A stretch of 22,353 bases of DNA from Treponema sp. GTDB lineage: Bacteria > Spirochaetota > Spirochaetia > Treponematales > Breznakiellaceae. Below are positions 1,674-22,353 of this stretch, one piece after another. Location: NCBI GenBank assembly GCA_031269405.1, contig JAISZE010000098.1, forward strand, positions 1 to 22,353, written 5' to 3'. Below the pieces are notes generated by a model that worked only from the letters and a program-made list of their open reading frames with translations, had not been told where the DNA came from and did not search any database. The position numbers were made by a program, and so were the translations under genes. Every line of letters starts with the position of its first letter. The stretch's first letter is position 1.

Positions 1674-1694
1674 TGTTGTTTCCTTACTTATTCC

Positions 1695-2492
1695 TTATTT
1701 CCAGGTTTCGGAGATCAGGGGATACTGGGTTTTGAAGCCCAGGAGCGAGAGATACACGCCGCAGGCGGGGTACCAGCCGTGAATCTGCCTGAGGCACGCG
1801 ATGGGGTCAAAGGAGGTGTCCTCGGGGATGGTGTAACCCACGGCATCGGACAGGAGGCCGATCTTCTTGCTCATCCAGGCTTCGATGATCACCGGCACAT
1901 CAGGGTACTTTGCGAGCATCTCATCAATAATAACGTTTTTCTCGATAATCGGCTGGGTGATGATGAAGGAAGCCCCGGCGGCGAACTTCCGCTTGAGCTT
2001 CTCAAACTCGTGTTCAGGCGGCTCGTAGGGGTTAAAGGCCGCGCCCATGGTAAAGGCCCCGGGGTACTCCCGGTTGATGTAGCGCAATAGCTCCACAGAG
2101 GTTACCGACTGCACCTCAGTTGCGCCCACATCGGCGGGCTGGAGCTTGGGCAGCCGGTCCGAGCCGTCGCCGGACACCACGAGGAGGTACGTAATCCCCA
2201 GCTTTTTGCAGGCGTCAAGGATCTCGTGGAGGTTTTCTTTCGTGTGGAAGGTGTTGAGGTGGATCATCACCTGTTTCCCGTTTACTTTAAGGCCCAGCTC
2301 CTCGATACACTCAGCCCCCTGGAACGCCAAAAGGCCCATAGCATTGTCGGTGATGCAGGCGCAGCGCCCGCTCTCCCGGACCTTCTCGTACTTGTCCGTA
2401 AAAAGCTGCAAATCCGCATCAAGTTTTTCGCTCGCCTGTTTGGGCGGCAGAATCTCTACATGGTAGATTTTATTCTGAATATGTTGACGCAT
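1695..2492 (-). CDS. MetF-like protein (methylenetetrahydrofolate reductase family)
   Basis: TIM-barrel protein of the MTHFR family, which in characterised members uses FAD to reduce methylene-THF to methyl-THF. Seen: 265 residues, slightly shorter than E. coli MetF. The N-terminal VEILPPK element carries Glu13 where MetF has its catalytic Glu in FEFFPP. VVSGDGSDR with Asp109 matches the substrate/FAD Asp region, and IITQPI with Gln180 matches the ITQ motif. A central segment, GAAFNPYEPPEHE, resembles the MetF stretch around the flavin. The start is ATG 2490-2492 behind a G6 run (complement of 2500-2505) that can serve as ribosome site. It is the first gene of a probable metF-like/etfB/etfA transcript, suggesting that ETF is its redox partner (inference). 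It could instead act on another one-carbon substrate. Confidence 0.85.
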   Translation of the reverse strand: MRQHIQNKIYHVEILPPKQASEKLDADLQLFTDKYEKVRESGRCACITDNAMGLLAFQGAECIEELGLKVNGKQVMIHLNTFHTKENLHEILDACKKLGITYLLVVSGDGSDRLPKLQPADVGATEVQSVTSVELLRYINREYPGAFTMGAAFNPYEPPEHEFEKLKRKFAAGASFIITQPIIEKNVIIDEMLAKYPDVPVIIEAWMSKKIGLLSDAVGYTIPEDTSFDPIACLRQIHGWYPACGVYLSLLGFKTQYPLISETWK

Positions 2493-10194: not shown

Positions 10195-10215
10195 CAGGCT
10201 GCCGGTAGGTTAAAG

Positions 10216-10971
10216 ATGAGTAAAAACGCTTTTGTTACCGGAGGCAGCCGGGGTATCGGCGCCGGTATAGTTAAGGTCCTTTCCGAATCCGGTTATGATA
10301 TTGCCTTCACCTATCACGAGAAGGACGATTCCGCCGAGGCCCTGAAAAATGAAGCCCGGGCCCTGGGAAGGCGGTGTTTTTGTTACCAGGCCAGCCTTGA
10401 AGATCCCGAGGTTCCCCTGAATGTTACCGCCCGGGCGGCGGAGGATCTGGGGGGCATTGATCTCCTGGTATGCAACGCAGGCAGGACCAGGCACAACGAT
10501 CTCCTTAACCTGGATCCGGCTTTAATCGAATTCATTTACGGCCTTAACTACCGTTCCTACCTGCTCTGTTCAAAGGCGGCGGCTAACGACATGGTCCGCC
10601 GGGGCGTTCCGGGGAACATCATCTTCATCACCTCCACCAGGGGTATCCGGGCCTATCCCGAAGACGCCCTCTACGGCGGGTTCAAAGCCGCCCTGAACCG
10701 GAGCGCCGAATCCATGGCCCTGGATCTGGCCAGGTACCGCATACGGGTGAACTGTATCGCCCCTGGGGCCACTGCCGTCAGGGGGAGCTACAGCCCTGAA
10801 GAGCTTTCCTCAGGCGCCTTTGCCCCGAGGATCCCCCTGGGCCGCCTGGGAACCCCCAGGGAGGTGGGGTATCTGGTGCGCTACATCGCCTCTGACGAAG
10901 CCGCGTACATGACAGGGAACATCGTCAAGCTCGACGGAGGCCTGATCCTTCCGGGGATGCCGGAACATTAG
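10216..10971 (+). CDS. Short-chain dehydrogenase/reductase (FabG-like)
   Basis: A 251-residue classical SDR, an NAD(P)-dependent alcohol/ketone oxidoreductase of the cytoplasm. Seen: the nucleotide motif TGGSRGIG (8-15), CNAG (87-90), Asn111, and the catalytic Ser140, Tyr153 and Lys157 (YGGFK). A C-terminal MTGNIVKLDGG, the usual end of FabG-like enzymes, is also present. The ribosome site is weak (AGG at 10207-10209). It lies 21 bases after the ManD-type gene. A likely role is interconversion of a keto-acid and an aldonate feeding the dehydratase, the job SDR-type mannonate oxidoreductases do elsewhere (inference). A generic 3-oxoacyl-type reductase cannot be excluded. Its stop lies one base from the stop of the convergent isomerase gene. 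Confidence 0.9.
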   Translation: MSKNAFVTGGSRGIGAGIVKVLSESGYDIAFTYHEKDDSAEALKNEARALGRRCFCYQASLEDPEVPLNVTARAAEDLGGIDLLVCNAGRTRHNDLLNLDPALIEFIYGLNYRSYLLCSKAAANDMVRRGVPGNIIFITSTRGIRAYPEDALYGGFKAALNRSAESMALDLARYRIRVNCIAPGATAVRGSYSPEELSSGAFAPRIPLGRLGTPREVGYLVRYIASDEAAYMTGNIVKLDGGLILPGMPEH

Positions 10972-10972
10972 T

Positions 10973-12373
10973 TCAAAGTAGAGTTACCTTACATCCCAGG
11001 CAGGAACCCAGGGCCTTTATTTCTTCCAGGACATCGCCGTAGACCAGGGCGCTGTGGTGGGTTCCTCCGCAGCGGGAATAGGCTTCCAGAAAAGCCGGAA
11101 GTTCCGTCCCTGGTTTGAACCAGCCGTTGACCGCTAAGCGCATCTTGTTTTCTCCGCTGACAGGAAGCATCTCCCCCAGGGCGGCGGTGATAGCGTAGAC
11201 CCCTTTCCCGAAAGGGGCGAAGTTTATCAGCGTGGCCTTTCCGCTCTTCATGGTTTTGTAGGCTACTGTGGGATTTTCCGCATCGGTAAAGGGGAAGGGT
11301 TTTTCCGTGAGAAAGGGTTTCCCGCTTGCGATATTGAAGTTGTATTCTCCCATGTGGCTCATAAAGACCGTTCCGTGTTCCCAGTCGGGGCAGAACATTT
11401 CGGTAAAAGTGGTTTCCCTGAAAATCGAAAGCAAGGCGCCGGTAAAGGCCGCCGTCAGAACATCCCCCTCGCCGGCATAGCCCAACCCTTCCGCCATAGC
11501 GGTGGAACATTCGGTAAAAGGCATAACAGGGAATCCCTTATTGCCTGCGCTGGATTCGTTGAAGTTTATGGTAAAGGCGCTGAGCCTTTCGTCTTTTGTC
11601 CAGTTACGAATGGCCAGACATACACGGGCGCTCCGGTCATAGACCTGGCGGCTCAGGTTTTTGTCAACCTCAAAGCGTTGGCAGTCCCGCTGGTATTCGG
11701 CGTCAATTTCGGCCTGCGTAACAGCGGCGATATAGGTTTCGCCTTTTTTGAAATCATAGGGAACCACGGTGATCCCCAGTTCCCGTTTCATCTCCTCAAA
11801 GGGAAGGCTGAAGTCCCCCATACCCTTGAACGGTCTGCCTACAAGACCGACCCGTGAATGGCTAAGGACCCTGGCCGCCGCCGCCGCTTTGGCGGTCTTG
11901 ACCACCCGGTCAACCACATCTGAGTGTTCTATATGGCCCGCATGAATGGTAAAGGCCTTGTTGTTCCTGATAAGGAGGTTGCACATATCCTGAACCCCAT
12001 GTATGCCGTGGTTGTAGCTGACGGCTTCAAGACCGGCGTTTTGATCAAAAGTATAATCCGGGGTGGTATCCATAACGATGATAGGGAGAGGGGTTTTCTT
12101 CAAGGCTTCTTCCGATTCCATCGAAGGGGAGTAGGCCAGGTGAAGGGTGATAACAACGTCGGCTTCCTGCCTTTCAAATTCCGAAAGGGCCCCGGCAAAT
12201 TCCCCTGCCAGCCGGCAGACAGGAACGGTGAGCACTTCAAGACCCGCGCCCTGGAGTTTATCCGCCGCTTTTCTATAAAACTTTTCGATACCGGGCCTCA
12301 TTTCGGGAGAACTCCGGTCATACAGCTCAATATAAAGCGGCAGAAGCCCCGCCACAGGTTTTCCATTTTTCAT
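10973..12373 (-). CDS. AraA/FucI-fold sugar isomerase
   Basis: A 466-residue protein of the L-fucose/L-arabinose isomerase superfamily, which interconverts aldoses and ketoses using Mn2+. Seen: an N-terminal domain with GLLPLYIELYD, and conserved acids and histidines in the second half. Glu302 (AGEGD), Glu332 (DWEHG), His340 (SHMGEYN) and His439/440 (GGTHHS) match in order the four metal/catalytic residues of L-arabinose isomerase. Overall divergence from AraA means the substrate is open. Start: ATG 12373, with a perfect AAGGAGG seven bases upstream. A longer frame to 12421 would overlap the amidohydrolase gene and lacks a ribosome site. It is the last gene of the minus-strand operon, 16 bases after the amidohydrolase, and probably supplies the ketose for the FGGY kinase. 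Confidence 0.82.
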   Translation of the reverse strand: MKNGKPVAGLLPLYIELYDRSSPEMRPGIEKFYRKAADKLQGAGLEVLTVPVCRLAGEFAGALSEFERQEADVVITLHLAYSPSMESEEALKKTPLPIIVMDTTPDYTFDQNAGLEAVSYNHGIHGVQDMCNLLIRNNKAFTIHAGHIEHSDVVDRVVKTAKAAAAARVLSHSRVGLVGRPFKGMGDFSLPFEEMKRELGITVVPYDFKKGETYIAAVTQAEIDAEYQRDCQRFEVDKNLSRQVYDRSARVCLAIRNWTKDERLSAFTINFNESSAGNKGFPVMPFTECSTAMAEGLGYAGEGDVLTAAFTGALLSIFRETTFTEMFCPDWEHGTVFMSHMGEYNFNIASGKPFLTEKPFPFTDAENPTVAYKTMKSGKATLINFAPFGKGVYAITAALGEMLPVSGENKMRLAVNGWFKPGTELPAFLEAYSRCGGTHHSALVYGDVLEEIKALGSCLGCKVTLL

Positions 12374-12389
12374 TTTATTCCTCCTTGCG

Positions 12390-13424
12390 TTACACGCAGC
12401 CTGAAAAAAGTTTTTCGGCATTGTTATAGAAAAAACCCTGCTTATATGCTTCGTCTTTTCCCAATTCTTCCATGGTATTCAGAATATTGTTGACTTGCTC
12501 GTAGACAAAAAAAGTGTATTTTGCCTCAGCTTCTTTTCCCTCTATGTGTTTGTTCCAGGGCAGGTCTTCCCGGCAGACATTGTAATACCCCGTCTCAGTC
12601 CAGCGGCGGCTTCCGTGAAAGAGGAATACGGGCAGGTCCAGCCCGTAGAGTATGCGATCGGGATGCAGAATCTGCATGGCCAGTTTGTGTACCTGTGGAT
12701 TCATCACCGCCGCGGTATCAAACCAGAAATGGTGAATGTCGTCTCCCAGAATTTCCGCCGCCTTCTCGAAGTAGCAGAGGTTGAAAGAGCGGCCCAAATG
12801 GGCAATAACGATCTTCAGCTTAGGAAACCGGGCGGCAATTTCCCGCAGTTCCCTGATATTGTTTTCATCGGCGAAGCGTCCCGCCCGGGGAAGGTGGAGG
12901 ACCACGCACTTGTTGAGCCGTTCCGCCAGGGCGCAGTGTTCCCAGGGGAAAAAGGCGGGGATGCTCAGTTCCGCTCCCTTAAAGGCCGAGACATAATCGG
13001 GGTAGGGCTTGAGGCCGGTAAAGCCATCGTTCCTGATGTCCTTTTCGATATTTTCAACCTTTGCCTCGGGCCTGGTGGTGATGAAGCCGTAGTCGATCTT
13101 CCCCGATTTGATAAGGGACGCGATGTACCGGTTATTGCCATCAGTGTCGGCTTCCTTGACAGCGACAGGAAGGGCAGCGAAACGGTAATCCCTCCCCGGA
13201 AAGAAGGAGTCCGCAAAAAAGCGGGCGTTTTCTATGGACATCTCGCCGCCGGATTGAAGGGCCCAGTCGCTGTCGATACGTTCCTGCGGAATTGACGCCG
13301 TGTGTTCGGGGAGGCTGATATGGGCATGGGCGTCCAGGATTTTGCGGGGCAGCCGTTTTTCCAGCCTGTCCTGAAAATAGGAGCGGTCAAGATCGGTTAC
13401 TGAAAAATAGCTTATAGGGTTCAT
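12390..13424 (-). CDS. Amidohydrolase-2 family metal-dependent hydrolase or decarboxylase
   Basis: A 344-residue TIM-barrel protein of the amidohydrolase-2 family, whose members hydrolyse lactones or decarboxylate acids. Seen: DAHAH (31-35) with metal ligands His33 and His35, Lys139 (GLKPYP), His177 (VLHLPR), His209 (IAHLGR) and Asp263 (YGLDLP), so the full ligand set seems intact. Its ATG overlaps the stop of the kinase gene (ATGA at 13421-13424), and AAAGGAGG lies within the kinase end, giving coupled translation. It sits between kinase and isomerase genes of a sugar operon. A lactonase acting on a sugar-derived lactone would fit (inference), but no specific substrate can be named. Confidence 0.83.
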   Translation of the reverse strand: MNPISYFSVTDLDRSYFQDRLEKRLPRKILDAHAHISLPEHTASIPQERIDSDWALQSGGEMSIENARFFADSFFPGRDYRFAALPVAVKEADTDGNNRYIASLIKSGKIDYGFITTRPEAKVENIEKDIRNDGFTGLKPYPDYVSAFKGAELSIPAFFPWEHCALAERLNKCVVLHLPRAGRFADENNIRELREIAARFPKLKIVIAHLGRSFNLCYFEKAAEILGDDIHHFWFDTAAVMNPQVHKLAMQILHPDRILYGLDLPVFLFHGSRRWTETGYYNVCREDLPWNKHIEGKEAEAKYTFFVYEQVNNILNTMEELGKDEAYKQGFFYNNAEKLFSGCV

Positions 13425-14917
13425 AGAACACCTCCTTTTTTGTACAGTTTTTCCATAAATGAAAGCACTTCGTTGTAACGCCGGGACTTCTCCCGGTAAA
13501 AATCCCTGTCCGCCGTGGTTTCTCTGACTGCTTCCTGCCCCGCCGCCTTTGCGGCGGCAGCGGCGTAGTCAGGATACCAGCCCTGGCCGCAGGCGGCGAT
13601 AAAGGCCGCCCCCAGAGCGCAACTGTCGGTTATGTTCATTTTGTAAAACGGAACGTCCAGGACGGCGGTAAGCATGTCGAGCCACACGGAGCTCTTGATG
13701 GCGCCGCCCATTATTTTGATGCTCCGGGGTGTAAAGCCGCGGGCTTCAAAATCCGTTACGGCGTTGTTAAGGGAAAATGCCGCGGATTCCATAACCGCCA
13801 GGGCCAGAGCATAAGGGTTTGCGGCAAAGTCCATTCCTATAAACCCGCCCCGGGCGGCTGGGTTCCAGGCAGGGTAAGAAGCCCCGGCCAGCCAGGGAAG
13901 GAAAAAAAGGTTTCCGCACTTCGGCGCTTCTGCCGCCGCCTTTTCATCAATGGCATCGAAACTTTCCCCAGGGAGGAAGGTATCTTTTATCCACTGATAG
14001 GCCGCCCCCGCTCCGGCCAGGGAAGCCATGTTCCCGTACAGCCCCTTGGCGGGATGGGGGCAGGCGGCAATGTAGGTATCAGAAAATATGGGCGTTTCGG
14101 TTATCCCCATAAGAACCCAGGCAGTACCGGTGGAAACCAGCATGTCTCCGGCGTTTACCGCCCCGCAGCCGATAGAGGCGCAGTACTGGTCGTGGGCGCC
14201 GTTGTACACCGGGGTGTCTTTTGTAAGCCCCAGGGCGGAAGCGGCTTCGGCAGTCAATCCGCCGATGAGGCTGCCCGTTGGGGCGATCTCCGGAAGTTCT
14301 TTTTCGCTTATCCCCAGGGCGTCGAGAATGGTTTTGTCCCAGCAGCCTGAGCCGGTATTGAAGAGCTGGCGTATGGCGGCGTTGGTGGGATCGATAACGG
14401 CCCGGCCCGTGAGCCGCAGGTTCATATATTCAAGCGTACTCAGGTAGAGCGCCGCATCCCGGTACGCGCCGCTCTGCCTCATCCAGAGGATCTTGGCGGC
14501 GTCATTGCCGGGACCGGCGCGCCAGCCTGAAATCCGGTAAATGGCCTCGTTTCCCAAAAGGGATTCGAGCTTTTCCGACTGGACCCGTGCCCGGCGGTCC
14601 ATCCAGGTAAGGGCCCGGCCCAAGGGTTTCCCCCGGCGATCCAGGGCGGTCATGGTAGCCCCCTGGGTAGAAAGGCTTATAGCCTTTATGTTCCGGGCCT
14701 TGTTTTCCGGCGCAGCCCGGCGTACCGCCTTGACGCAGGCATCCCACCAGTCCCCGCTTTCCTGTTCAACGCGGTTTCCTTCGCTGTAAAGCCGGTAGCC
14801 CTCGTAACCCTGGCCGGCAATATTCCCCGCCTCGGCCATCAGTATCGCCTTGGTCCCCGAAGTTCCTACGTCTATTCCCAGGACATAAGGCCCGTTATTT
14901 CCCTGATTCATTACCAT
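13421..14917 (-). CDS. FGGY-family carbohydrate kinase (xylulokinase-like)
   Basis: A 498-residue ATP-dependent sugar kinase that phosphorylates a ketose or polyol. Seen: the first phosphate motif GIDVGTSGTK (14-23) with Asp16, the sugar-binding region STQGATM (83-89) and WMDRRA (105-110), and the catalytic base Asp243 in NGAHDQYC. The adenosine-side GGAIKSSVW is in the C-terminal domain. Length and motif order fit xylulokinase-type members. The first ATG (14915-14917) overlaps the YjbQ stop as TAATG. A second ATG two codons later is equally possible, and the ribosome site is weak, so re-initiation is likely. In the operon it probably acts on the product of the AraA-like isomerase, giving a ketose phosphate for the TIM-like protein. 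The specific sugar is unknown. Confidence 0.92.
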   Translation of the reverse strand: MVMNQGNNGPYVLGIDVGTSGTKAILMAEAGNIAGQGYEGYRLYSEGNRVEQESGDWWDACVKAVRRAAPENKARNIKAISLSTQGATMTALDRRGKPLGRALTWMDRRARVQSEKLESLLGNEAIYRISGWRAGPGNDAAKILWMRQSGAYRDAALYLSTLEYMNLRLTGRAVIDPTNAAIRQLFNTGSGCWDKTILDALGISEKELPEIAPTGSLIGGLTAEAASALGLTKDTPVYNGAHDQYCASIGCGAVNAGDMLVSTGTAWVLMGITETPIFSDTYIAACPHPAKGLYGNMASLAGAGAAYQWIKDTFLPGESFDAIDEKAAAEAPKCGNLFFLPWLAGASYPAWNPAARGGFIGMDFAANPYALALAVMESAAFSLNNAVTDFEARGFTPRSIKIMGGAIKSSVWLDMLTAVLDVPFYKMNITDSCALGAAFIAACGQGWYPDYAAAAAKAAGQEAVRETTADRDFYREKSRRYNEVLSFMEKLYKKGGVL

Positions 14918-15414
14918 TACTCGCCTATAATCTGCACCTGGACTTGGCGTTCCCTCGGGCAGGTCTGATCAAAATCAATAAAATAGATGTGGCCGTAGCT
15001 TCCCAGGTCCAGCTTTCCGTCAATTATGGGGATTGATTCGTTCCTGCCGATAAACACAGAACGGAGATGGGCGTCGGTGTTAAGGGTCTGGGGTTTGTCT
15101 TCCCCGTGCTGTTTTGCAAATTCCGTCAGTTCCGGGCCGGGGTGCATGTACTGCCCTTCCTTGCGGCAGGTTGGAATCAGTTTTTCAAAAATATCAAGCA
15201 GATCCTGCTGGAGGTACTCCAGGCCGTTGTAGGTTTTATCGAAGGAACATTCCTGGGTCATAACCGAACAGGTAGTATGATGGGAATATACCAGGCAGAA
15301 GCCGCACGTAACCCCCGATTTATCTACAATTTCCTGAACTTTTTCTGTTATCGTATGAAAAACCGGCCTTATTCCCGTAGACAGCAGATTAAAGGATTCC
15401 CGTAACGCTTTCAT
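14917..15414 (-). CDS. YjbQ/UPF0047 family protein
   Basis: A 165-residue member of the YjbQ family, small beta-rich proteins reported to have weak thiamine-phosphate synthase activity and otherwise of unclear function. Seen: SHHTTCS (44-50) with the conserved histidines, AHLRSVFIGRNESIPI (115-130), which is the family hallmark with His116, and LDLGSYGHIYFIDFD (136-149). It is about 25 residues longer than the usual ~140, with the extra length between the two motifs (about 83-110). It starts in ATGA overlapping the TIM-like stop (15411-15414) and ends in TAATG overlapping the kinase start, so it is locked into the sugar operon at both ends. This makes a dedicated role in this pathway likely, though its chemistry is unknown. 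Confidence 0.88.
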   Translation of the reverse strand: MKALRESFNLLSTGIRPVFHTITEKVQEIVDKSGVTCGFCLVYSHHTTCSVMTQECSFDKTYNGLEYLQQDLLDIFEKLIPTCRKEGQYMHPGPELTEFAKQHGEDKPQTLNTDAHLRSVFIGRNESIPIIDGKLDLGSYGHIYFIDFDQTCPRERQVQVQIIGE

Positions 15415-16130
15415 TTTACCAGCTCCGCAGTTTTTATTTTTTTCAGGTCTTCGTATGCTTTTCGTACATTGAAGATCATTTCATCGGCCAGGGCATGGGG
15501 GTCGGGGGCGTTTATTATACCCGAACATGAACCGGCGGCCTCGGAACCAGCGTAGATGAACTTGTAGACCTGTTCCCCTGAGGATATACCCGCAGCCTGT
15601 TCTACCAGGATGTCCGGGTATATTTCCTTGATAGCCCTGATAGACTCAAGGACATAACCCATGCCGCTGGCGGATCCCGAACCGATAAGTTCCGCAGGCT
15701 CAGGATTGATGATGTCCGGGTGAAGCTGGGCGATGGCCCTGGCTTCGGCAATGGTATCGGCGCAGGCGAAGCTGAGCATATCCAGTTCGTTGGCCCGGTC
15801 TATGGTCTTTTTAATGGCTGTAAGGGACATGGGGCGTTCGCAGTGGTTTACCACTACGCCCCGGGCTCCCGCCGCCCTGAGGGCTTCTGGGAGCACATCG
15901 GCCATCCCCCTGCCAGGGCGGATAAGATCCATATAGGGGGCCAGTACGATAAGGTTACGGGTGTTTTCCGCCACCCTCCGGATCTCCGTATACGGGGCAA
16001 TAAAAAGGACATCAATGTCGTACTTTTCAGCCGCTTTGTCCGCTGTTCTGGCGAGTTTCAGAACCTCATCGCCGTAAATATAGTTCTTTACACCGATTTC
16101 AAAAAAGGGTACTCTAATTTTAGCTTTCAT
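15411..16130 (-). CDS. Triosephosphate-isomerase-like protein
   Basis: A 239-residue TIM-family protein; family members isomerise short phosphosugars. Seen: Lys15 in IGVKNY (TIM Lys12), His96 in NHCERPM (TIM GHSER) and Glu145 in PEPAELIGSG (TIM YEPVWAIGTG), so all three catalytic residues are kept. The C-terminal phosphate-binding AGSEAAGSCSGI differs from glycolytic TIM. The divergent loops and operon context argue against a housekeeping tpiA. Homologues in erythritol and threitol pathways act on tetrulose phosphates, a possible analogy. The start is ATG 16130 with AAGG eight bases away. An in-frame ATG at 16157 would lie at the -10 box of the promoter and lacks a ribosome site. It is the first gene of the minus-strand operon, so it is expressed at once upon induction. 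Confidence 0.87.
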   Translation of the reverse strand: MKAKIRVPFFEIGVKNYIYGDEVLKLARTADKAAEKYDIDVLFIAPYTEIRRVAENTRNLIVLAPYMDLIRPGRGMADVLPEALRAAGARGVVVNHCERPMSLTAIKKTIDRANELDMLSFACADTIAEARAIAQLHPDIINPEPAELIGSGSASGMGYVLESIRAIKEIYPDILVEQAAGISSGEQVYKFIYAGSEAAGSCSGIINAPDPHALADEMIFNVRKAYEDLKKIKTAELVK

Positions 16131-16148
16131 TGATAAAACCTTGAGGAG

Positions 16149-16177
16149 ATTATACATGCCATACGTTCATTTGTCAA
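16149..16177 (-). promoter_or_regulatory. Consensus sigma-70-type promoter of the minus-strand sugar operon
   Basis: Read on the minus strand, TTGACA (16177-16172) is followed by exactly 17 bases and TATAAT (16154-16149). All 12 positions match the consensus. Transcription would start near 16142, about 12 bases before the TIM-like ATG. The -35 box lies inside the repeated operator-like element, so strong transcription is likely held off by a repressor. Confidence 0.88.
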
Positions 16178-16217
16178 TGATTGTTTGATTGTTTTTTCTT
16201 GTTGACAATGATCGTTT
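16171..16217. promoter_or_regulatory. Putative DeoR operator: 16-bp element repeated 31 bp apart
   Basis: TTGTCAATGATTGTTT (16171-16186) and TTGACAATGATCGTTT (16202-16217) match at 14 of 16 positions and start 31 bp apart, about three helical turns. An extra TGATTGTTT lies at 16186-16194, giving a tandem TGATTGTT pair. Each 16-mer contains a -35 box, one for each divergent promoter. Position next to the DeoR-type gene makes autoregulation plus repression of the operon likely. Confidence 0.65.
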
Positions 16218-16231
16218 TGCCGATTTATGGT
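16202..16231 (+). promoter_or_regulatory. Probable promoter of the DeoR-family gene
   Basis: TTGACA (16202-16207), an 18-bp spacer and TATGGT (16226-16231; 4 of 6 matches). The predicted start of transcription, seven bases after the -10 box, falls on 16238, which is the A of the chosen ATG. This would give a leaderless mRNA, in keeping with the lack of a ribosome site. Confidence 0.5.
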
Positions 16232-16237
16232 AAAAAA

Positions 16238-17014
16238 ATGAACAAGATTGAAGAACGCAAAAATAAACTGATTGGCTGCCTTGAACAAAAAGGAAAGCTT
16301 TCTGTCGCCGAAGTGGCGGATCTCTTCAGAATTTCCCTGCCTACCGCCCGCAGGCTCTGCACTCAGCTTGAACAGGAACGCAAGGCTATGCGCACCCACG
16401 GGGGGATCCGTTTTATCCCCGAAATTACTGTTTCCTATACCTTCGATACCATTGACACCGAATACAACGCGGAAAAAGAGGCTATCGCCCGGTACGCCTG
16501 CGGTATGGTGAAAAACAACGGGATCATCTTTCTGGATGCAGGTACTACGGTAAAACACCTGGCTCTGGCCCTGGCTGAACGGATCCGAAACGGGCAGCTT
16601 TCGGGAATCTCGGTTTTTACCAACTCCCTGGCGAATATGGAAATTCTGGAACCTGTATGTAAAGTTACGGTAATCGGCGGGCTTTACCGCAAGGAACGCC
16701 GGGATTTCTGCGGTTTTCTCGCGGAAAGGACGCTTCGGACCCTGCGCTTTAACATCTGCTTTATCGGCGCCGATGCCCTGAACCTCACCGACGGTATCAT
16801 GGCTATGGATATAGAGACGGTCCGTTTGGACGAACTCCTTATCAGCCGCTCGGACCAGTCGATTTGCCTGGTTCATTCTGAAAAATTTCATAAATTCTCA
16901 CTTATCTCCATTTGCGCGGTCCGGGATGTCAGTTCTATTATAACCGATAAAAAAATAAGCCCCGAAGTCCTTAGGGAATACCAAGCTGCCGGGGTCAATA
17001 TAATACCGGTATGA
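16238..17014 (+). CDS. DeoR-family transcriptional regulator
   Basis: A 258-residue sugar-operon regulator. Seen: an N-terminal winged helix-turn-helix (about 6-57: KLSVAEVADLFRIS, TARRLCTQLEQ, RTHGGI). A DeoR sensor domain follows (about 75-230) with DAGTT (100-104), TNS (128-130), IGG (146-148) and FIGADA (175-180), the phosphosugar-binding fold related to ribose-5-phosphate isomerase. The usual late D-S-K motif is changed to HSEK (213-216). I chose ATG 16238 because homology begins there. The frame is open upstream to 16181, but that part overlaps promoter elements. No Shine-Dalgarno precedes 16238. It is transcribed away from the catabolic operon and upstream of the importer, so it probably represses both until a pathway phosphosugar appears. 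Confidence 0.92.
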   Translation: MNKIEERKNKLIGCLEQKGKLSVAEVADLFRISLPTARRLCTQLEQERKAMRTHGGIRFIPEITVSYTFDTIDTEYNAEKEAIARYACGMVKNNGIIFLDAGTTVKHLALALAERIRNGQLSGISVFTNSLANMEILEPVCKVTVIGGLYRKERRDFCGFLAERTLRTLRFNICFIGADALNLTDGIMAMDIETVRLDELLISRSDQSICLVHSEKFHKFSLISICAVRDVSSIITDKKISPEVLREYQAAGVNIIPV

Positions 17015-17023
17015 TAGATACAA

Positions 17024-17083
17024 GCCTTAGAGGGTCCCTGCATTGAGCCGCTCTCCTACGGCGCCTCCGGGATGAACTAAGGC
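17024..17083. repeat. 60-bp imperfect palindrome (REP-like element or structured RNA)
   Basis: Ends GCCTTAG (17024-17030) and CTAAGGC (17077-17083) are perfect inverted repeats. Inside them TCCC (17035-17038) pairs with GGGA (17069-17072). GAGCCG (17045-17050) pairs with CGG (17059-17061) plus CTC (17065-17067) around a three-base bulge, closing an 8-base loop. The 4x4 internal loop is symmetric. It begins 10 bases after the regulator stop. There is no T-run after it, so it is not a standard terminator. Confidence 0.6.
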
Positions 17084-17120
17084 AAACTGTTCGTTCCTAT
17101 AATCCATTTCTTCTATTAAA

Positions 17121-17205
17121 ATGATCAATCATACCAAACGATCACTTTTTATTGTATCTTTTCGTGTTTTTTGGTAAAACGGTCAATATTTTGAAAAAAT
17201 GATCA
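17121..17205. promoter_or_regulatory. Putative DeoR half-sites upstream of the importer operon
   Basis: ATGATCAATCAT (17121-17132) is an inverted repeat. AAACGATCA (17136-17144) is the exact reverse complement of the TGATCGTTT found at 16209-16217. AAACGGTCA (17177-17185) differs by one base and lies 41 bp further on. TGATCA occurs at 17200-17205, just upstream of the -35 box. The shared motif suggests that the same regulator controls the importer. Confidence 0.5.
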
Positions 17206-17213
17206 AAAAATGA

Positions 17214-17242
17214 TTGACAAGTAGAATTCTGCGTGTTACAAT
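17214..17242 (+). promoter_or_regulatory. Strong sigma-70-type promoter of the importer operon
   Basis: TTGACA (17214-17219), exactly 17 bases, then TACAAT (17237-17242): 11 of 12 consensus positions. Transcription should start near 17249, leaving a ~22-base leader with AGGAGGG at 17259-17265 before the ATG at 17271. TGATTGAC at 17211-17218 overlaps the -35 box. Confidence 0.85.
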
Positions 17243-17270
17243 GTTTTATCATTTCCTTAGGAGGGAAAAA

Positions 17271-18935
17271 ATGAAGAAAGCAATTTTTTTGGTAACTGGG
17301 TTGTTGTGTACCGTCCTGCTCTTTGCCGGAGGCGGTTCGCAGTCAAAACAGGGAGACAGCGGCTTATATGTCATTCAGACGCTTGGCGAGCCGATAGCGG
17401 GCCTCAAACGATCGGATGATACCAAGGTGGGCCAGTATATCCGCGATAAATTCGGCATTGTATTTGAATACAGCCCCTTTTCAGGGGATGTACGGGAAAA
17501 GCAAAGCCTCATGCTGGCGGCTGGCGATTATGGGGAAGTGCAGCCATTGCAGCGGGATGATATGGTACTCAATTATATTAACGCCGGGGCCCTTATTGAT
17601 CTCCTTCCCTATCTTGATTCAATACCCAATTTCAAGTCCCGTTACAAGGACCTTATCCCCTATTGGCGTTTAATCTGCGGCGGCCCTCTGTACAAATATG
17701 AGAACTGGGTCCCTCGTAACCTGAATACCGATATAGAGGTCAATGATATACTGGTGCGGAGTGATCTGCTCGAAAAAGCCGGATGGCCCCAGCTTCTTTC
17801 AACTTCCGACTGGATAGCGTTTCTGGAAAAGGTGGTTCCCGGAGCGGTGGACGTAAACGGCAGGCAAATAGCCGGTTTAACCATGTCCATGGCCGAACCC
17901 TGGGGGCTCGCGGGAGTTGTCTGCGCTTTATACGAAAAGGGAGGAAATTATCTGCCTCTGAGCAATGAAGGATTTATTTTTGACTTTACCAATGACCGGT
18001 TTGTGGATTATTTTCAAAATGAAAATGTTAAAGAATCCTTTAAGTTTTTGAGCGATCTGAACCGGCGGGGGCTTCTGGATCCGGAATGTTTTAGCGATTT
18101 CTATGCCCAAACTACACAGAAAATTTATACTGGTTCTGTGGCGGCTGTGAATTATAGTATCTATTCAGGGGGAGCTAATGAACTGAGAAACGCGGGCCAT
18201 CCTGAAATGGAATATGTCAAGCTGCCCATACAAAGTGATTCGCAGGTAAGGAACGGGGAAAAACGGCTGGTCCGCATGGAAACCACCCGTTCATTTAACT
18301 CTTTCGGTCTCACCAAAAACTGCAAAAACCCCGAAAAATTACTGGCCCTGATCGACTGGGCCTGTACCGATGAAGGACAGATTATGCTCACTTCCGGTAT
18401 TGAGGGGGTCCACTGGACCCGGAACAGCAGCGGCAAGCGGGTCTGGACCGATTTTTTAGTTCAAATGTCCAGGGATTCAAAGCTTAATTTGACTGAGGGT
18501 CTTGATATATGGACAGATAGCGGCCTCCCACGCTTCAATCTCCCGGCGGCAGACGGCCAGCCCCATAATTTGAAATCCCAGATTGAATGGGTTGACGGCC
18601 AGGGCCAAACAGACCGGGCCAGAGAGGTCTACACGAAATTGGGCTGGGATTCTTCCATGTCCTGGTACAGCAAAAACACAAAGCTCGGTCATACCGGGGT
18701 TGCCGGTACGGTCTATGTGGATCCCACCTCGGATCTCGGGGCCGTGCATACCAAAATGACGGAAACCAGAATTAAACATTCGGCTTCCCTTATTATGGCA
18801 AAGACCGATGCGGAATTTGAGTCGGCCTACCGGAACGCCATGGCCGAATATGATCGCCTGGACCACAAGGCGGTTATTGATGAATTCAACCGGCAGTACC
18901 GGGAAAAGATAGCCGGTCTTAATAAATACCGCTGA
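17271..18935 (+). CDS. Extracellular solute-binding protein of an Lpl-type ABC sugar importer
   Basis: A 554-residue substrate-capturing component of a carbohydrate ABC importer (family 1, LipO/LplA-like group, which are characteristically over 500 residues). Seen: signal sequence MKKAIFLVTGLLCTVLLFA followed by GGGSQSKQ. The place of the usual lipobox Cys after LLFA is taken by Gly, and the only Cys lies within the hydrophobic core. It may thus be a periplasmic protein or stay anchored by its signal. Lobe features such as FTNDRFVDYF and the Trp/Tyr-rich C-terminal half fit sugar binders. Start: ATG 17271 with AGGAGGG six bases upstream. The frame opens earlier at a TTG inside the -35 box, which must be untranslated. 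It is the first gene of the importer operon, followed by two permeases. No ATPase gene is present; such systems usually share a general MsmX-like ATPase. Confidence 0.9.
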   Translation: MKKAIFLVTGLLCTVLLFAGGGSQSKQGDSGLYVIQTLGEPIAGLKRSDDTKVGQYIRDKFGIVFEYSPFSGDVREKQSLMLAAGDYGEVQPLQRDDMVLNYINAGALIDLLPYLDSIPNFKSRYKDLIPYWRLICGGPLYKYENWVPRNLNTDIEVNDILVRSDLLEKAGWPQLLSTSDWIAFLEKVVPGAVDVNGRQIAGLTMSMAEPWGLAGVVCALYEKGGNYLPLSNEGFIFDFTNDRFVDYFQNENVKESFKFLSDLNRRGLLDPECFSDFYAQTTQKIYTGSVAAVNYSIYSGGANELRNAGHPEMEYVKLPIQSDSQVRNGEKRLVRMETTRSFNSFGLTKNCKNPEKLLALIDWACTDEGQIMLTSGIEGVHWTRNSSGKRVWTDFLVQMSRDSKLNLTEGLDIWTDSGLPRFNLPAADGQPHNLKSQIEWVDGQGQTDRAREVYTKLGWDSSMSWYSKNTKLGHTGVAGTVYVDPTSDLGAVHTKMTETRIKHSASLIMAKTDAEFESAYRNAMAEYDRLDHKAVIDEFNRQYREKIAGLNKYR

Positions 18936-18970
18936 CGGTGGTATAACGCTAACCCGGTAAATACCGCTGA
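18923..18970 (+). repeat. 13-bp direct repeat with small hairpins at the binding-protein/permease junction
   Basis: TAAATACCGCTGA occurs at 18923-18935 (including the binding-protein stop) and again at 18958-18970, 35 bp later. ACCG-CTGA-CGGT (18928-18939) and CGGT-AAAT-ACCG (18955-18966) can form hairpins. Such structures between binding-protein and permease genes often protect the upstream mRNA and lower permease expression. Confidence 0.7.
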
Positions 18971-18987
18971 AAGGGGAGCCAATAGGA

Positions 18988-19914
18988 ATGGATGGAAAAC
19001 TAATCAGGTTTGGAAAGAGAATTAACCGGCATAAATTTACCCTCGTCATGCTTCTTCCGGCTTTTGTTTTGACGTTTATATTCGCCTATGTTCCCGTATC
19101 CGGCTGGGTAATGGCCTTTACCGATTACCGTATCGGGGGCGGCCTTTTCAGCGGTGAATTCGCCGGGCTGCGTTTTTTCAAAAGGTTTTTGTTCGACAGT
19201 TCCGATTTTAGCTACCTGTTAAGAAACACCCTGGTGATGAATGTTTCGGCGGTGGTTGTAAACCTGATCATCGCCGTGGTCTTTTCCATCATGCTCCATG
19301 AGATCAGGCTCAAGGGGCTTTCCAAAACGTTACAGACCGCAACCTTTTTTCCCTACTTCATTTCATGGGTAATCTCCTATTCTGTGGTTTGGGCTTTATT
19401 TGCGGTCCGGTCCGGCGCCATTAATCAGTTTCTGGTAGAGGCAAACCTTGTGCCCTCGGGGATCAATCTTCTGGGAGATCCCAAATATTCCTGGGGGCTT
19501 ATGATTTTCCTGTCCATGTGGAAACATACCGGGTACAATTCGGTTATCTTTCTGGCAACCATCAGCGGTATTCCCCATGAAGAGTATGAAGCCGCCGCCA
19601 TAGACGGCGCGGGCCGGTTCCGCTTAATGTACCATGTTACTTTGATGAATATGCTGCCGACTGTTGCCATCCTGCTTATCATGAATTCCGGTTGGGTTCT
19701 CAGTTCCAGTCTTGAACAGTTTTTTGTCTTTTCCAATTCAACCAACTGGGAGACTATGGAAGTTCTGGATATGTATATCTACAAATTCGGGTTGAAGAAC
19801 CTCAATTATTCCTACGCTACTGCGGTAGGCATCTTGAAAACAGTGGTCAGTATCTTCCTGGTATGGGCTGCCAATTTTGGGAGTAAAAAACTTAACGGTT
19901 CTTCTATTTTTTAG
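18988..19914 (+). CDS. ABC sugar importer permease, LplB-like
   Basis: A 308-residue inner-membrane permease of the carbohydrate ABC family. Seen: six hydrophobic segments (starting at about 18, 80, 116, 165, 220 and 280). The cytoplasmic EAA loop, EEYEAAAIDGAGRFRLMYHV (about 198-217), contacts the ATPase. FAYVPVSGWVMAFTDY in the first periplasmic part is typical of LplB proteins. The start is ATG 18988 with AAGGGGAG nine bases upstream. It is separated from the binding-protein gene by 52 bases holding a repeat/hairpin, and its TAG lies inside the ribosome site of the next permease gene. It pairs with the LplC-like protein to form the channel. Confidence 0.93.
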   Translation: MDGKLIRFGKRINRHKFTLVMLLPAFVLTFIFAYVPVSGWVMAFTDYRIGGGLFSGEFAGLRFFKRFLFDSSDFSYLLRNTLVMNVSAVVVNLIIAVVFSIMLHEIRLKGLSKTLQTATFFPYFISWVISYSVVWALFAVRSGAINQFLVEANLVPSGINLLGDPKYSWGLMIFLSMWKHTGYNSVIFLATISGIPHEEYEAAAIDGAGRFRLMYHVTLMNMLPTVAILLIMNSGWVLSSSLEQFFVFSNSTNWETMEVLDMYIYKFGLKNLNYSYATAVGILKTVVSIFLVWAANFGSKKLNGSSIF

Positions 19915-19923
19915 GAGGGAACA

Positions 19924-20814
19924 GTGCTGGCCATAAATATGAGACGATCTTTTGGAGAGAAGGTATTTGACGCCCTGTTGGTTCTTATTGCGTTGATTCT
20001 TCTAGTTTTGTCAATATATCCGTTTTTATATATCCTGAATTATTCAGTATCCAGTCCCGGACGAATTTCCCATCCCCTGCTGCTTTGGCCGGAAGGCTTT
20101 ACCCTGATTTCCTATAAAACTCTGTTTGCGGATTCTACGGTGATCAGTGCTTTTCTCATCTCCGTGAGCCGCAGTGTTTTGGGCTCTTCCGGGATGCTTA
20201 TCATCAGCGGCATGGCTGGTTACGCCCTGAGCAGGCACAATCTGCCCTGGGGGAAATTTTTCCGCCTCTTTTTTCTTTTTACGATGTATTTTTCCGGCGG
20301 AATTATTCCCACGTATCTGCTCTACAAGAACCTGCATTTGATGAACAGTTTTTGGGTCTATATAATTCCCGGACTGGCGGCGCCTTTTAACATGTTTTTG
20401 ATCAAAACCTATATAGAGGCGATCCCCAGGGATCTTGAAGAAGCAACGCTGGTTGACGGGGGTACGGAAATAGACGCGTATTTCCGGGTTCTGTTACCCC
20501 TCTGTATGCCTGTCAATGCGGCGGTGTTTTTATTTGCCTGTATCGGACACTGGAATTCTTACATAGATACCCAGTTGTACAACGCCATGAGCCGGAACCT
20601 CTATACCCTGCAATATGTTCTGTACAATACCCTTGCGTCACAGCTAAGCCGGTCGTTGGAGGAAGCCAAACAGATGGTGAACGCCAATATGGTCTCCACC
20701 CAGTCTTTGAAGATGGCTATAACGGTTGTTACTATTGTCCCGGTTATGTGCGTGTATCCATTTCTACGTAAATATTTTGTTTCAGGGCTGCTTGTAGGCT
20801 CTATTAAGGCTTAA
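19924..20814 (+). CDS. ABC sugar importer permease, LplC/YtcP-like
   Basis: A 296-residue second permease subunit. Seen: six hydrophobic segments, with SIYPFLYILNYSVSS near the N-terminus (family hallmark), FTMYFSGGIIPTYLLYKNLHLMNS in the middle, and an EAA loop around LEEATLVDGGTEIDAYFRV (about 174-192). The C-terminal GLLVGSIKA is typical for the family. The start is taken as GTG 19924, five bases after AGGAGG (19913-19918). An in-frame ATG at 19939 is a weaker option. Together with the LplB-like protein it forms the translocation pore for the sugar or oligosaccharide delivered by the binding protein. Confidence 0.93.
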   Translation: MLAINMRRSFGEKVFDALLVLIALILLVLSIYPFLYILNYSVSSPGRISHPLLLWPEGFTLISYKTLFADSTVISAFLISVSRSVLGSSGMLIISGMAGYALSRHNLPWGKFFRLFFLFTMYFSGGIIPTYLLYKNLHLMNSFWVYIIPGLAAPFNMFLIKTYIEAIPRDLEEATLVDGGTEIDAYFRVLLPLCMPVNAAVFLFACIGHWNSYIDTQLYNAMSRNLYTLQYVLYNTLASQLSRSLEEAKQMVNANMVSTQSLKMAITVVTIVPVMCVYPFLRKYFVSGLLVGSIKA

Positions 20815-20828
20815 TTAAGGAGAAGAAT

Positions 20829-21962
20829 ATGCATAATTACACGGATAACGTGAAACTTGCGCTGGATACCCTAGACCGCCGCCCGACTGTGGGCATACCA
20901 ACTGCTTTTGTTCATATCATGGAGCACCAGGTTATTGAGCGTCTGGCCTGCTGCCGGGATGGTGAATATAGCCGGGATCCCCATGGGGTATATATAAAGA
21001 TGCAGCAGAACATAGGCGCATGCATGCTTGATCAATATCTAGCGGATAATCCGCTTAGCATGGGCGGTCATGGCTATGAGCACGGAAGCAACAGCCCTAC
21101 TACCGGTCTTACTGCTGTTTTGGATGGAATAACCATAGATTCCCCCGAGGCGGTGGCGGAGCATCTTGAAACCTATGAATTCTCCCGTCTGCGGGAAAAA
21201 ATCAAGTCTTTTTACGCGCCCGATGTTAAAAGGAAGATTGCCAATCAAATGTCCTGGCAGGCTCAAATTTTGGGAGAAAATATTCTATCGACAGGATACG
21301 GGCATTTCGCTTTTCCGGCTCTTATGTACGGGCAATACGGATACGTCCCCTTTTTGGAATCCTACGCTATCTATCCGGAACTCTGGGAACAGCACTTCCG
21401 CTTACAGGGGGAATATGCCGCCCTTCACAACAGGGCTGTGGCGGAACTATACCTCCAGAACGAATACCCCCTTTTTCAGCGCTTGGATCATGATATGGCC
21501 GATTCCCGGTCGACCCTGGTCAGTATTGCGTCTCTGGAAAAAATGTGGCTGCCCCATTTTCTTGCTTCCATTGCTCCCGCCCTGGACGCGGGTTTTAAGC
21601 TGATATGGCATTGCGACGGCAATCTGAGCGCTTTAGTACCAATCCTCATTGAAGCCGGGCTTGCGGGGTTTCAGGGATTTCAATATGAGGATGGAATGGA
21701 TTATGAAAAAATTTGCGCCATGCGTACCAGGGACGGGGAAACCCTTATTATTGAAGCGGGTGTTTCGGTTACCAGAACTTTGCCCTTTGGAACACCCGCC
21801 GATGTTGTCCGGGAAATGAAATTCCTTGTGGAACATGGTCCAAAAACCGGACTTTTTTTGGCCGCTTCCAGTTCATGTACGCCTGGGACGCCCTGGAAGA
21901 ATATAAAAACGTTTGTTGAGGGTTTACAATACTACCGTATAAACGGGAGAGTTGGGTTATAA
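20829..21962 (+). CDS. URO-D superfamily (uroporphyrinogen decarboxylase/MtaA-like) protein
   Basis: A 377-residue TIM-barrel protein related to uroporphyrinogen decarboxylase and to MtaA-type methyltransferases that act on methyl-corrinoid or thiol acceptors. Seen: His261-Cys262 in WHCDGN, in the place of the metal/substrate HxCG element of the MtaA branch; Cys350 in SSSCTPGTPWKNI near the C-terminus, a typical last motif of this branch; and a His221-Asp222 pair (RLDHDM). Start: ATG 20829 with AAGGAGA seven bases upstream, 14 bases after the permease stop, so it belongs to the importer operon. It is very unlikely to make haem here. The three thiol/imidazole ligands suggest a Zn-dependent transfer or cleavage reaction on the imported compound, but function is unknown. 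Confidence 0.82.
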   Translation: MHNYTDNVKLALDTLDRRPTVGIPTAFVHIMEHQVIERLACCRDGEYSRDPHGVYIKMQQNIGACMLDQYLADNPLSMGGHGYEHGSNSPTTGLTAVLDGITIDSPEAVAEHLETYEFSRLREKIKSFYAPDVKRKIANQMSWQAQILGENILSTGYGHFAFPALMYGQYGYVPFLESYAIYPELWEQHFRLQGEYAALHNRAVAELYLQNEYPLFQRLDHDMADSRSTLVSIASLEKMWLPHFLASIAPALDAGFKLIWHCDGNLSALVPILIEAGLAGFQGFQYEDGMDYEKICAMRTRDGETLIIEAGVSVTRTLPFGTPADVVREMKFLVEHGPKTGLFLAASSSCTPGTPWKNIKTFVEGLQYYRINGRVGL

Positions 21963-21963
21963 T

Positions 21964-21981
21964 CAAGCCTATCAAGGCTTG
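21964..21981 (+). other. Intercistronic hairpin
   Basis: CAAGCCT (21964-21970), ATCA loop, AGGCTTG (21975-21981): a perfect 7-bp stem starting two bases after the URO-D-like stop. It is not followed directly by a T-run (the next T-rich stretch begins 14 bases later). It is therefore more likely an mRNA-processing or stability element, or a weak attenuator, than a terminator. Confidence 0.6.
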
Positions 21982-22012
21982 TCAAATTGAGTATTATTTT
22001 TGGAGGCAGAAA

Positions 22013-22353
22013 ATGGAAAAGTTGAAAATCGGCGTATTTGGCGGAAGCCGGGGGATTACAATGATGAATATCCTCCTCAGGCATCCGGAGGCGGAACTTG
22101 TCGCGGTATGCGACAAGTATGTTCCCTTGCTTGACAGGGCGAAGAAAAACGCGGAAGAAAACGGAAAACAGGTCGCGCTCTACGAACGTTTTGACGATTT
22201 CCTGAAACACCCGGGGCTTGACGCCGTTGTTCTGGCAAATTACGCCAACGAACATGCCGTCTATGGGGTAAAGGCCCTGGAAGCAGGTAAACACGTTTTG
22301 AGCGAGGTTTTGGCCTGCGAAACCATGGCCCAGGCGGTTCAGCTTATTGAGGC
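22013..22353 (+). CDS. Gfo/Idh/MocA-family oxidoreductase (3' part outside window)
   Basis: The N-terminal 113 codons of a cytoplasmic NAD(P)-dependent sugar oxidoreductase. Seen: a Rossmann start KIGVFGGSRG (4-13), acidic strand-2 end VAVCDKY (30-36), LDAVVLANYANEH (69-81) and AGKHVLSEVLACET (91-104), in the order of the family. The canonical EKP, whose Lys is catalytic in many members, reads SEVLA here, so this belongs to a branch without that Lys. ATG 22013 has GGAGG (22002-22006) six bases upstream. It is 50 bases after the URO-D-like gene and probably the fifth gene of the importer operon. The truncated C-terminal domain prevents a substrate prediction. Confidence 0.88.
   Translation, partial: MEKLKIGVFGGSRGITMMNILLRHPEAELVAVCDKYVPLLDRAKKNAEENGKQVALYERFDDFLKHPGLDAVVLANYANEHAVYGVKALEAGKHVLSEVLACETMAQAVQLIE

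What the first reader, a model, noticed from the sequence alone, without database searches (positions are those of the whole stretch)
10973..22353. Candidate undescribed sugar uptake-and-catabolism system
One DeoR regulator lies between a five-gene catabolic operon (TIM-like, YjbQ, FGGY kinase, amidohydrolase-2, AraA-like isomerase) and an importer operon (binding protein, two permeases, URO-D-like, Gfo/Idh/MocA). Related operator-like motifs lie at both. Isomerase, kinase and phosphosugar isomerase form a logical chain, but no pathway known to me combines them with YjbQ and a URO-D-like protein. A working hypothesis is aldose to ketose, then ketose phosphate, then an isomerised phosphate entering central metabolism, with the amidohydrolase, URO-D-like and Gfo/Idh proteins preparing a modified (lactone, methylated or oxidised) substrate.
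Basis: partly seen in the sequence, partly recalled or inferred. Interest (0 to 1): 0.75.

Follow-up and report, generated by a model that had tools for sequence, protein, structure and literature searches.

The report
Sugar-use system with linked TIM–YjbQ pair
A bacterial gene cluster that appears to import and break down an unidentified sugar contains a tightly linked enzyme pair, one a triose-phosphate-isomerase relative and one from the YjbQ family whose true job is unsettled; the pair recurs in many related gene clusters, which makes the function of YjbQ testable.

Summary
Ten complete genes and one cut gene form two divergent operons around a DeoR regulator. A 28-nt element (24/28 identical; 0 of 500 shuffles as good) overlaps the -35 box of both operons. 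Isomerase and kinase fall below the curated AraA and XylB cut-offs, and no aldolase or epimerase partner was found among the proteins scanned. Relatives keep the genes together: of 80 loci chosen for the isomerase, 56 carry an amidohydrolase relative and 52 a kinase relative. The unexpected result is the TIM-like/YjbQ pair: 49 of 57 TIM copies have YjbQ within 800 nt on the same strand, and a KdsD-like SIS isomerase is in 33 of 38 TIM genomes against 9 of 253 others. The TIM-like protein keeps Lys-His-Glu (57/57) but has lost the Asn of N-x-K (53/57); 20 of 22 such genomes tested have a separate TpiA. A class I aldolase is in 0 of 17 TIM genomes and 18 of 24 isomerase-bearing genomes without TIM. 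Best reading: aldose → ketose → ketose phosphate, then carbonyl shifting by TIM-like plus YjbQ (plus SIS) into central sugar phosphates, where other bacteria use the aldolase. Gene set and linkage are shown; chemistry and substrate are inferred.

The parts
10973..12373 (-). AraA-like aldose isomerase (ISO), 466 aa
   Evidence: Pfam Arabinose_Iso_C 3.2e-11 and AraA_central 9.2e-10; 80.7 bits to the L-arabinose isomerase model against cut-off 622; E318, E341, H356 and H455/H456 (numbering of the 482-aa frame) align with positions of E. coli AraA recalled to bind the metal
12390..13424 (-). Amidohydrolase-2 (AMH), 344 aa
   Evidence: Pfam Amidohydro_2 2.8e-15; H33, H35, K139, H177, H209, D263 at 95% or more in a 69-row alignment
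13421..14917 (-). FGGY sugar kinase (KIN), 498 aa, nearest XylB but below cut-off
   Evidence: FGGY_N 7e-53, FGGY_C 3.3e-28; XylB 295 bits against cut-off 380.25
14917..15414 (-). YjbQ/UPF0047 of the TIM-linked branch, 165 aa
15411..16130 (-). TIM-like (archaeal-type, PRK04302) phosphosugar isomerase, 239 aa
   Evidence: NF003302 147.5 bits over cut-off 132; TIGR00419 68 bits under cut-off 130.6; K24, H105, E153 in 57/57, Asn of N-x-K lost (numbering of the 248-aa frame)
16149..16177 (-). promoter-like site of the catabolic operon, TTGACA-17-TATAAT
   Evidence: 12 of 12 consensus match
16171..16198 (-). operator-like 28-nt element, catabolic side
   Evidence: 24/28 to 17193-17220, 0 of 500 shuffles as good
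16238..17014 (+). DeoR-family regulator, 258 aa
   Evidence: DeoRC 4.4e-37, HTH_DeoR 4e-10
17193..17220 (+). operator-like 28-nt element, importer side
17214..17242 (+). promoter-like site of the importer operon, TTGACA-17-TACAAT
   Evidence: 11 of 12
17271..18935 (+). family-1 extracellular solute-binding protein, 554 aa
   Evidence: PDB 9pmy 2.7e-18; relatives beside related permeases in L023, L037, L066
18988..19914 (+). ABC sugar permease 1
   Evidence: BPD_transp_1 1.9e-10
19924..20814 (+). ABC sugar permease 2
   Evidence: BPD_transp_1 1e-6
20829..21962 (+). URO-D/MtaA-fold protein, 377 aa
22013..22353 (+). Gfo/Idh/MocA oxidoreductase, cut by the window end
   Evidence: GFO_IDH_MocA 4.3e-9 on 113 aa

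Best explanation
A DeoR-controlled system that imports an unidentified sugar through a binding-protein ABC importer (ATPase supplied from elsewhere), isomerises the aldose to a ketose (AraA-like), phosphorylates it (FGGY kinase), and then moves the carbonyl along the phosphorylated ketose with a specialised TIM-like isomerase and a specialised YjbQ acting in sequence, so that a central sugar phosphate results. In most related genomes a KdsD-like SIS isomerase joins as a third member; bacteria that have a related isomerase but no TIM-YjbQ mostly carry a class I aldolase instead. SHOWN by computation: gene set, operon structure, shared operator-like element, conservation of catalytic residues, TIM-YjbQ linkage, SIS co-occurrence, complementary distribution of TIM-YjbQ and aldolase in the 41 genomes compared. 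INFERRED: that YjbQ is an isomerase, the order of steps, the position phosphorylated, and the substrate. Amidohydrolase, URO-D-like and Gfo/Idh probably act before the isomerase on a derivative of the sugar; this is the weakest part.
For: Linkage: 49 of 57 TIM copies in 55 stretches have a same-strand YjbQ within 800 nt, 32 a SIS gene within 6 kb (window included, L065 and L171 are one locus counted twice). Sample of 291 Clostridia genomes: UPF0047 in 38 of 38 TIM genomes against 95 of 253 others; ISO in 17 of 18 genomes whose TIM is >=60% identical to the window's against 9 of 273 (lists); SIS in 33 of 38 against 9 of 253, p 5e-30. Not housekeeping: 20 of 22 TIM genomes tested have a separate TpiA over cut-off. 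Altered substrate site: catalytic K, H, E in 57/57, Asn of N-x-K is G/S in 53/57, Ser after the His is C, A or V in 54/57 (archaeal TIM 1hg3 has both N and S). YjbQs of these loci split from 20 ordinary YjbQs, 100/99. Alternative lower pathway: a class I aldolase (profile A7, E <= 1e-80) is in 0 of 17 TIM genomes and 18 of 24 isomerase genomes in which no TIM was found. [quoted passage not shown] that LerI/EryH is a TIM relative and DerI/EryI RpiB-like is recalled.
Against: I found no assay or complex that shows an isomerase activity for any YjbQ; the family model is named for a secondary thiamine-phosphate synthase activity. The SIS gene is not in the window (whose contig appears to end with it) and was not found in 5 of 38 TIM genomes. 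URO-D-like and TIM/YjbQ genes share none of the 80 isomerase loci, so the window's combination is unusual. The aldolase complementarity fits YjbQ being an aldolase equally well, and is confounded with descent (all TIM genomes there are clostridial). In 4 stretches (L165-L168) the pair sits beside a class II ketose-bisphosphate aldolase gene, and these keep the TIM Asn. The kinase and amidohydrolase beside TIM are often only distant relatives of the window's (kinase 24-31% in 24 of 35 copies, amidohydrolase 25-30% in 10 of 15), so one substrate for all is not shown. Neighbouring glycosidases show no pattern.
Confidence: 0.45

Rival explanations
1. YjbQ cleaves the phosphorylated ketose as an unrecognised aldolase, and the TIM-like enzyme equilibrates the triose phosphate formed; the class I aldolase of the other genomes is the functional substitute.
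For: Aldolase and TIM/YjbQ are complementary: 0 of 17 TIM genomes against 18 of 24 without TIM (E <= 1e-80); 0 of 17 against 8 of 14 if genomes that gave a row to the aldolase profile are left out, p 0.0004; no shared locus among 17 aldolase and 13 TIM/YjbQ loci of 80. YjbQ has conserved His and Asp.
Against: Locus-level exclusion alone is weak (p 0.06) and the genome contrast is confounded with descent; at E <= 1e-20 one TIM genome (G007) has a weak match. Loss of the TIM Asn and Ser argues against triose phosphate as substrate, and a TpiA is present anyway. The SIS partner fits isomerisation better.
Confidence: 0.2
2. The TIM-like protein does the single phosphoketose isomerisation needed; YjbQ does an ancillary job (repair or detoxification of a side product, or a thiamine-related reaction).
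For: The YjbQ model is named for a secondary thiamine-phosphate synthase activity and the family occurs widely without TIM (95 of 253 other Clostridia).
Against: YjbQ of these loci is a separate branch and tracks TIM tightly, in several loci in two copies; no thiamine gene was among the window proteins scanned.
Confidence: 0.17
3. The importer half and the catabolic half are separate systems that happen to be neighbours.
For: G+C differs (0.543 catabolic, 0.481 importer); TIM/YjbQ loci of relatives often have rbs-type importers, and URO-D occurs only in loci without TIM/YjbQ.
Against: A 28-nt element shared at both promoters with one DeoR between them. One genome (G012, source of L016) carries ISO, KIN, AMH, URO-D, GFO, TIM, YjbQ and SIS.
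Confidence: 0.13
4. An ordinary L-arabinose, D-xylose or L-fucose pathway with divergent sequences.
For: Isomerase and kinase superfamilies match.
Against: Cut-offs missed for isomerase (80.7 of 622) and kinase (295 of 380); no AraD, FucA or RhaD partner among the 20 window ORFs scanned with Pfam.
Confidence: 0.05

Closest known systems
Tetritol (erythritol/L-threitol) catabolism: LerI-DerI, EryH-EryI
   Same: A ketose 1-phosphate is converted to an aldose phosphate by two successive phosphosugar isomerases (PMC10733421, passages); the first is recalled to be TIM-like
   Different: The second enzyme is recalled to be RpiB-like, not YjbQ; those pathways start with a polyol dehydrogenase or kinase (recalled), not an AraA-like isomerase
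L-arabinose operon (AraA-AraB-AraD)
   Same: Isomerase superfamily and FGGY kinase
   Different: Isomerase 80.7 bits of 622 needed, kinase nearer XylB, no AraD among proteins scanned, extra TIM-YjbQ and amidohydrolase
Archaeal triosephosphate isomerase (1hg3, 2h6r)
   Same: Sequence family (1.1e-32) and catalytic Lys, His, Glu
   Different: Asn of N-x-K and Ser after His replaced in nearly all of the linked group; separate TpiA in 20 of 22 genomes tested
UPF0047/YjbQ (1vmj, 2p6c and others)
   Different: 165 aa in the window with extra segments; branch separate from 20 ordinary clostridial YjbQs
URO-D / MtaA
   Different: 10-13% identity to these two; H-x-D-G-N where MtaA is recalled to have H-x-C; no corrinoid protein among the window proteins scanned

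Membership tests
L-arabinose isomerase (AraA equivalog) | NCBIfam NF002795 cut-off 622 bits | tested here: not met
   80.7 bits
L-arabinose isomerase (AraA equivalog) | metal-binding Glu, Glu, His, His | tested here: met
   aligned positions conserved; ligand roles recalled
Xylulokinase (XylB equivalog) | TIGR01312 cut-off 380.25 bits | tested here: not met
   295 bits
Triosephosphate isomerase (TIGR00419) | cut-off 130.6 bits | tested here: not met
   68 bits
PRK04302 archaeal-type TIM subfamily | cut-off 132 bits | tested here: met
   147.5 bits
Triosephosphate isomerase (activity) | Asn-x-Lys, His-Ser, Glu at the active site | tested here: not met
   window has Gly-x-Lys, His-Cys, Glu; in the group Lys, His, Glu 57/57, Asn 4/57, Ser 3/57; sequence signs only, activity untested
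UPF0047/YjbQ | PF01894 and TIGR00149 cut-offs; fold | tested here: met
MtaA methylcobamide:CoM methyltransferase | NF040654 cut-off 400 bits; H-x-C zinc motif (recalled) | tested here: not met
   20 bits; H-x-D in 12 of 12
Amidohydrolase superfamily, binuclear metal site | HxH, Lys, His, His, Asp (recalled) | tested here: met
   conserved at 95% or more in a 69-row alignment
Tetritol pathway (LerI-DerI type) | RpiB-type second isomerase in the operon (recalled) | tested here: not met
   none among the window proteins scanned
Tetritol pathway (LerI-DerI type) | activity on erythrulose phosphates | not testable with these tools
   needs enzymes
Binding-protein ABC sugar importer | binding protein plus two permeases | tested here: met
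   no ATPase among the proteins scanned

The most novel reading that the evidence does not exclude
TIM-like, YjbQ and SIS proteins form a general 'carbonyl-walk' module: a ketose phosphorylated at C1 has its carbonyl moved from C2 to C3 (TIM-like), C3 to C4 (YjbQ) and, for hexoses, C4 to C5 (SIS), so that it becomes, read from the other end, an ordinary D-ketose terminal phosphate. This would let bacteria feed L- or rare sugars into central metabolism without the aldolase that other bacteria use for the same ketose phosphate, and would give the widespread UPF0047/YjbQ family a first physiological reaction.
Probability: 0.27. Interest if true: 0.87.

Novelty: new variant of a known kind. Interest (0 to 1): 0.62.

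Why it matters
UPF0047/YjbQ occurs in 10 of 14 well-known control genomes from bacteria and archaea; that its physiological function is unsettled is my recollection, and my searches found nothing to the contrary. A branch tied to a sugar kinase, an aldose isomerase and a TIM relative narrows the question to sugar phosphates and names partner enzymes with which to test it. The system also marks an unrecognised sugar used by Clostridia and, judging by source names, some Treponema-like bacteria, and two alternative lower pathways (isomerases or aldolase) for what may be the same phosphorylated ketose.

Tried and rejected

Literature: searches for YjbQ/UPF0047 with sugar or isomerase terms, erythrulose isomerases, kinase/amidohydrolase/isomerase context, URO-D in sugar clusters (0 papers) and apiose (0 papers) listed no title or abstract that describes this system; subscription papers are not held. 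Passages only were seen of PMC10733421, PMC10190533 and PMC3245297; all others as search listings.

(1) The first aldolase test used one sequence (0 of 17 against 10 of 24) and missed aldolases that I already knew in G017 and G025, and the TIM status of 16 of the 24 comparison genomes had not been tested. TIM was then sought in those 16 and not found (the query does match 17 other genomes), and the aldolase was sought with a profile of 16 of the 17 aldolases. Because the complementarity became clearer I raised the YjbQ-aldolase rival from 0.17 to 0.20 and lowered the ancillary one from 0.20 to 0.17. (2) Kinase and amidohydrolase identities in the wider TIM set were recounted.

Limits of counts: tblastn found TIM in 12 and YjbQ in 14 of 80 loci, ORF clusters 13 loci with either; my ORF caller missed some genes, so 49 of 57 is a lower bound. 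Kinase and amidohydrolase hits go down to about 23% identity and may include paralogues. An early script stopped on a wrong start coordinate, corrected. The 80 loci are the best 80 of 313. One search scored 7996 candidates and lists 120. The contrasts in 291 genomes use one sample whose members are related by descent, so the p values overstate independence. Of the 67 rows called linked in the YjbQ tree, 58 lie next to TIM and 9 do not in my gene map.
Full report
WHAT IS THERE. The window holds two divergent operons around a DeoR gene. Minus strand: TIM-like, YjbQ, FGGY kinase, amidohydrolase-2, AraA-like isomerase, with overlapping or nearly overlapping junctions (-4, -1, -4, +16 nt). Plus strand: DeoR, then binding protein, two permeases, URO-D-like protein and a Gfo/Idh gene cut by the window end. 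The binding protein has no Pfam hit but matches family-1 solute-binding proteins in the PDB. No transport ATPase was among the proteins scanned; no tRNA and no Rfam element was found. No whole genome is held for the window.

REGULATION. The longest inverted match between the two intergenic regions is 28 nt, 24 identical, placed so that it overlaps the -35 box of the best promoter-like site of each operon in the same orientation relative to transcription. In 500 dinucleotide shuffles of both regions the best match never exceeded 22. One regulator for both operons is therefore likely, not shown.

CONSERVED NEIGHBOURHOODS. A profile of 19 isomerases found 313 relatives in the genome collection; the best 80 were fetched. 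Around them tblastn with the window proteins found a relative of the amidohydrolase in 56, kinase in 52, Gfo/Idh in 30, DeoR in 15, YjbQ in 14, URO-D-like in 13, TIM-like in 12, each permease in 8, the binding protein in 3 (weak hits may be paralogues). Two types appear. Type A (Clostridia, like the window's catabolic half): isomerase, kinase (34-50% identical to the window's in the 9 TIM/YjbQ loci of this set that have one), TIM and YjbQ, often with an rbs-type importer. Type B (Paenibacillus, PVC, Armatimonadota and others): amidohydrolase, isomerase, a more distant kinase, class III aminotransferases, Gfo/Idh, URO-D-like and a DeoC/LacD-type class I aldolase. The split is not clean: in the wider TIM set the kinase is often as distant (24-31% in 24 of 35 copies). 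Aminotransferases (25 loci) and TIM/YjbQ (13) share no locus (p 0.007), nor do aldolase (17) and TIM/YjbQ (p 0.06). By genome, the aldolase profile (16 rows) matches at E <= 1e-80 in 0 of 17 TIM genomes and in 18 of 24 genomes of the isomerase set in which TIM was sought and not found; at E <= 1e-20 in 1 and 19. Ten of the 18 gave rows to the profile; without them it is 0 of 17 against 8 of 14, p 0.0004. All 17 are clostridial, so descent is a confounder. The window combines type A enzymes with a URO-D/Gfo importer operon of lower G+C (0.481 against 0.543), so it may be a mosaic; one Clostridia genome (G012, source of L016) holds ISO, KIN, AMH, URO-D, GFO, TIM, YjbQ and SIS.

THE TIM-YjbQ(-SIS) MODULE. 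In 25 genomes of the isomerase loci the TIM-like gene was found in 17, at 65-74% identity for the best copy, and not in the other 8 (five Paenibacillus, Robinsoniella, two spirochaete genomes by the titles); all 17 best places have YjbQ next to it. In samples of 291 Clostridia and 247 Spirochaetota genomes TIM (E <= 1e-30) was in 38 and 1, the isomerase (E <= 1e-60) in 26 and 2. Contrasts in the 291: UPF0047 38/38 against 95/253; ISO 17/18 (TIM >=60% identical) against 9/273. Forty-eight stretches were fetched. Of 57 TIM copies 49 have a same-strand YjbQ within 800 nt and 32 a SIS-domain gene within 6 kb. The SIS protein is nearest KdsD/GutQ arabinose-5-phosphate isomerases, without reaching their cut-offs (112.6 of 505 bits). 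It is in 33 of 38 TIM genomes and 9 of 253 others of the sample; in the set in 45 of 53 TIM genomes and 0 of 8 without TIM. Eight of the 55 stretches also hold a fructose-6-phosphate-aldolase-like gene, and four (L165-L168) a class II aldolase gene (one member of each cluster was annotated).

MECHANISM. Aldose to ketose (isomerase), ketose to ketose phosphate (kinase): inferred from families. Then two or three successive isomerisations: inferred from linkage, retained TIM chemistry with changed substrate contacts, the SIS partner, the complementary aldolase, and the LerI/DerI precedent (PMC10733421, passages seen). If the kinase phosphorylates O1, TIM-like would move C=O from C2 to C3 and YjbQ from C3 to C4, giving from a pentulose an ordinary pentulose 5-phosphate; a hexulose would need a third step, for which SIS is a candidate. 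None of these steps is shown. YjbQ as aldolase explains the complementarity as well; YjbQ as ancillary enzyme also remains open.

VERDICT.

Noticed in passing
window 8992-10971 (+): Mandelate-racemase/enolase-superfamily enzyme and an SDR dehydrogenase, convergent with the catabolic operon; perhaps a sugar-acid pathway, not linked to the isomerase in relatives (MLE 0 of 80, SDR 2 of 80).
   Followed up: partly
window 17271-22353 against 10973-16130: Importer operon has lower G+C (0.481) than the catabolic operon (0.543); possible mosaic origin.
   Followed up: partly
window 885-2492 (-): ETF-domain protein and MTHFR-like protein side by side; not examined.
   Followed up: no
L028, L037, L048, L050, L061, L070 and others: Type B neighbourhoods in Paenibacillus and Cohnella: kinase-amidohydrolase-isomerase with a class III aminotransferase, some with Gfo/Idh or a class I aldolase in the locus; apparently another undescribed sugar pathway.
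   Followed up: partly
L160:6006-7355, also L147, L151, L155-L157, L161, L162, L173-L176: A second isomerase family (its annotated member is SftI-like, 54.8 bits of 700) stands near TIM in 12 stretches, often with a ceramidase-like protein.
   Followed up: no
L065:2903-3877, L012:929-2110 and 16673-17611, L145: A NagB-like protein without Pfam hit and a NagA-like deacetylase recur near some TIM/YjbQ loci, hinting at an amino sugar.
   Followed up: no
L165-L168: The most distant TIM-YjbQ pairs keep the TIM Asn and sit beside a class II ketose-bisphosphate aldolase.
   Followed up: partly
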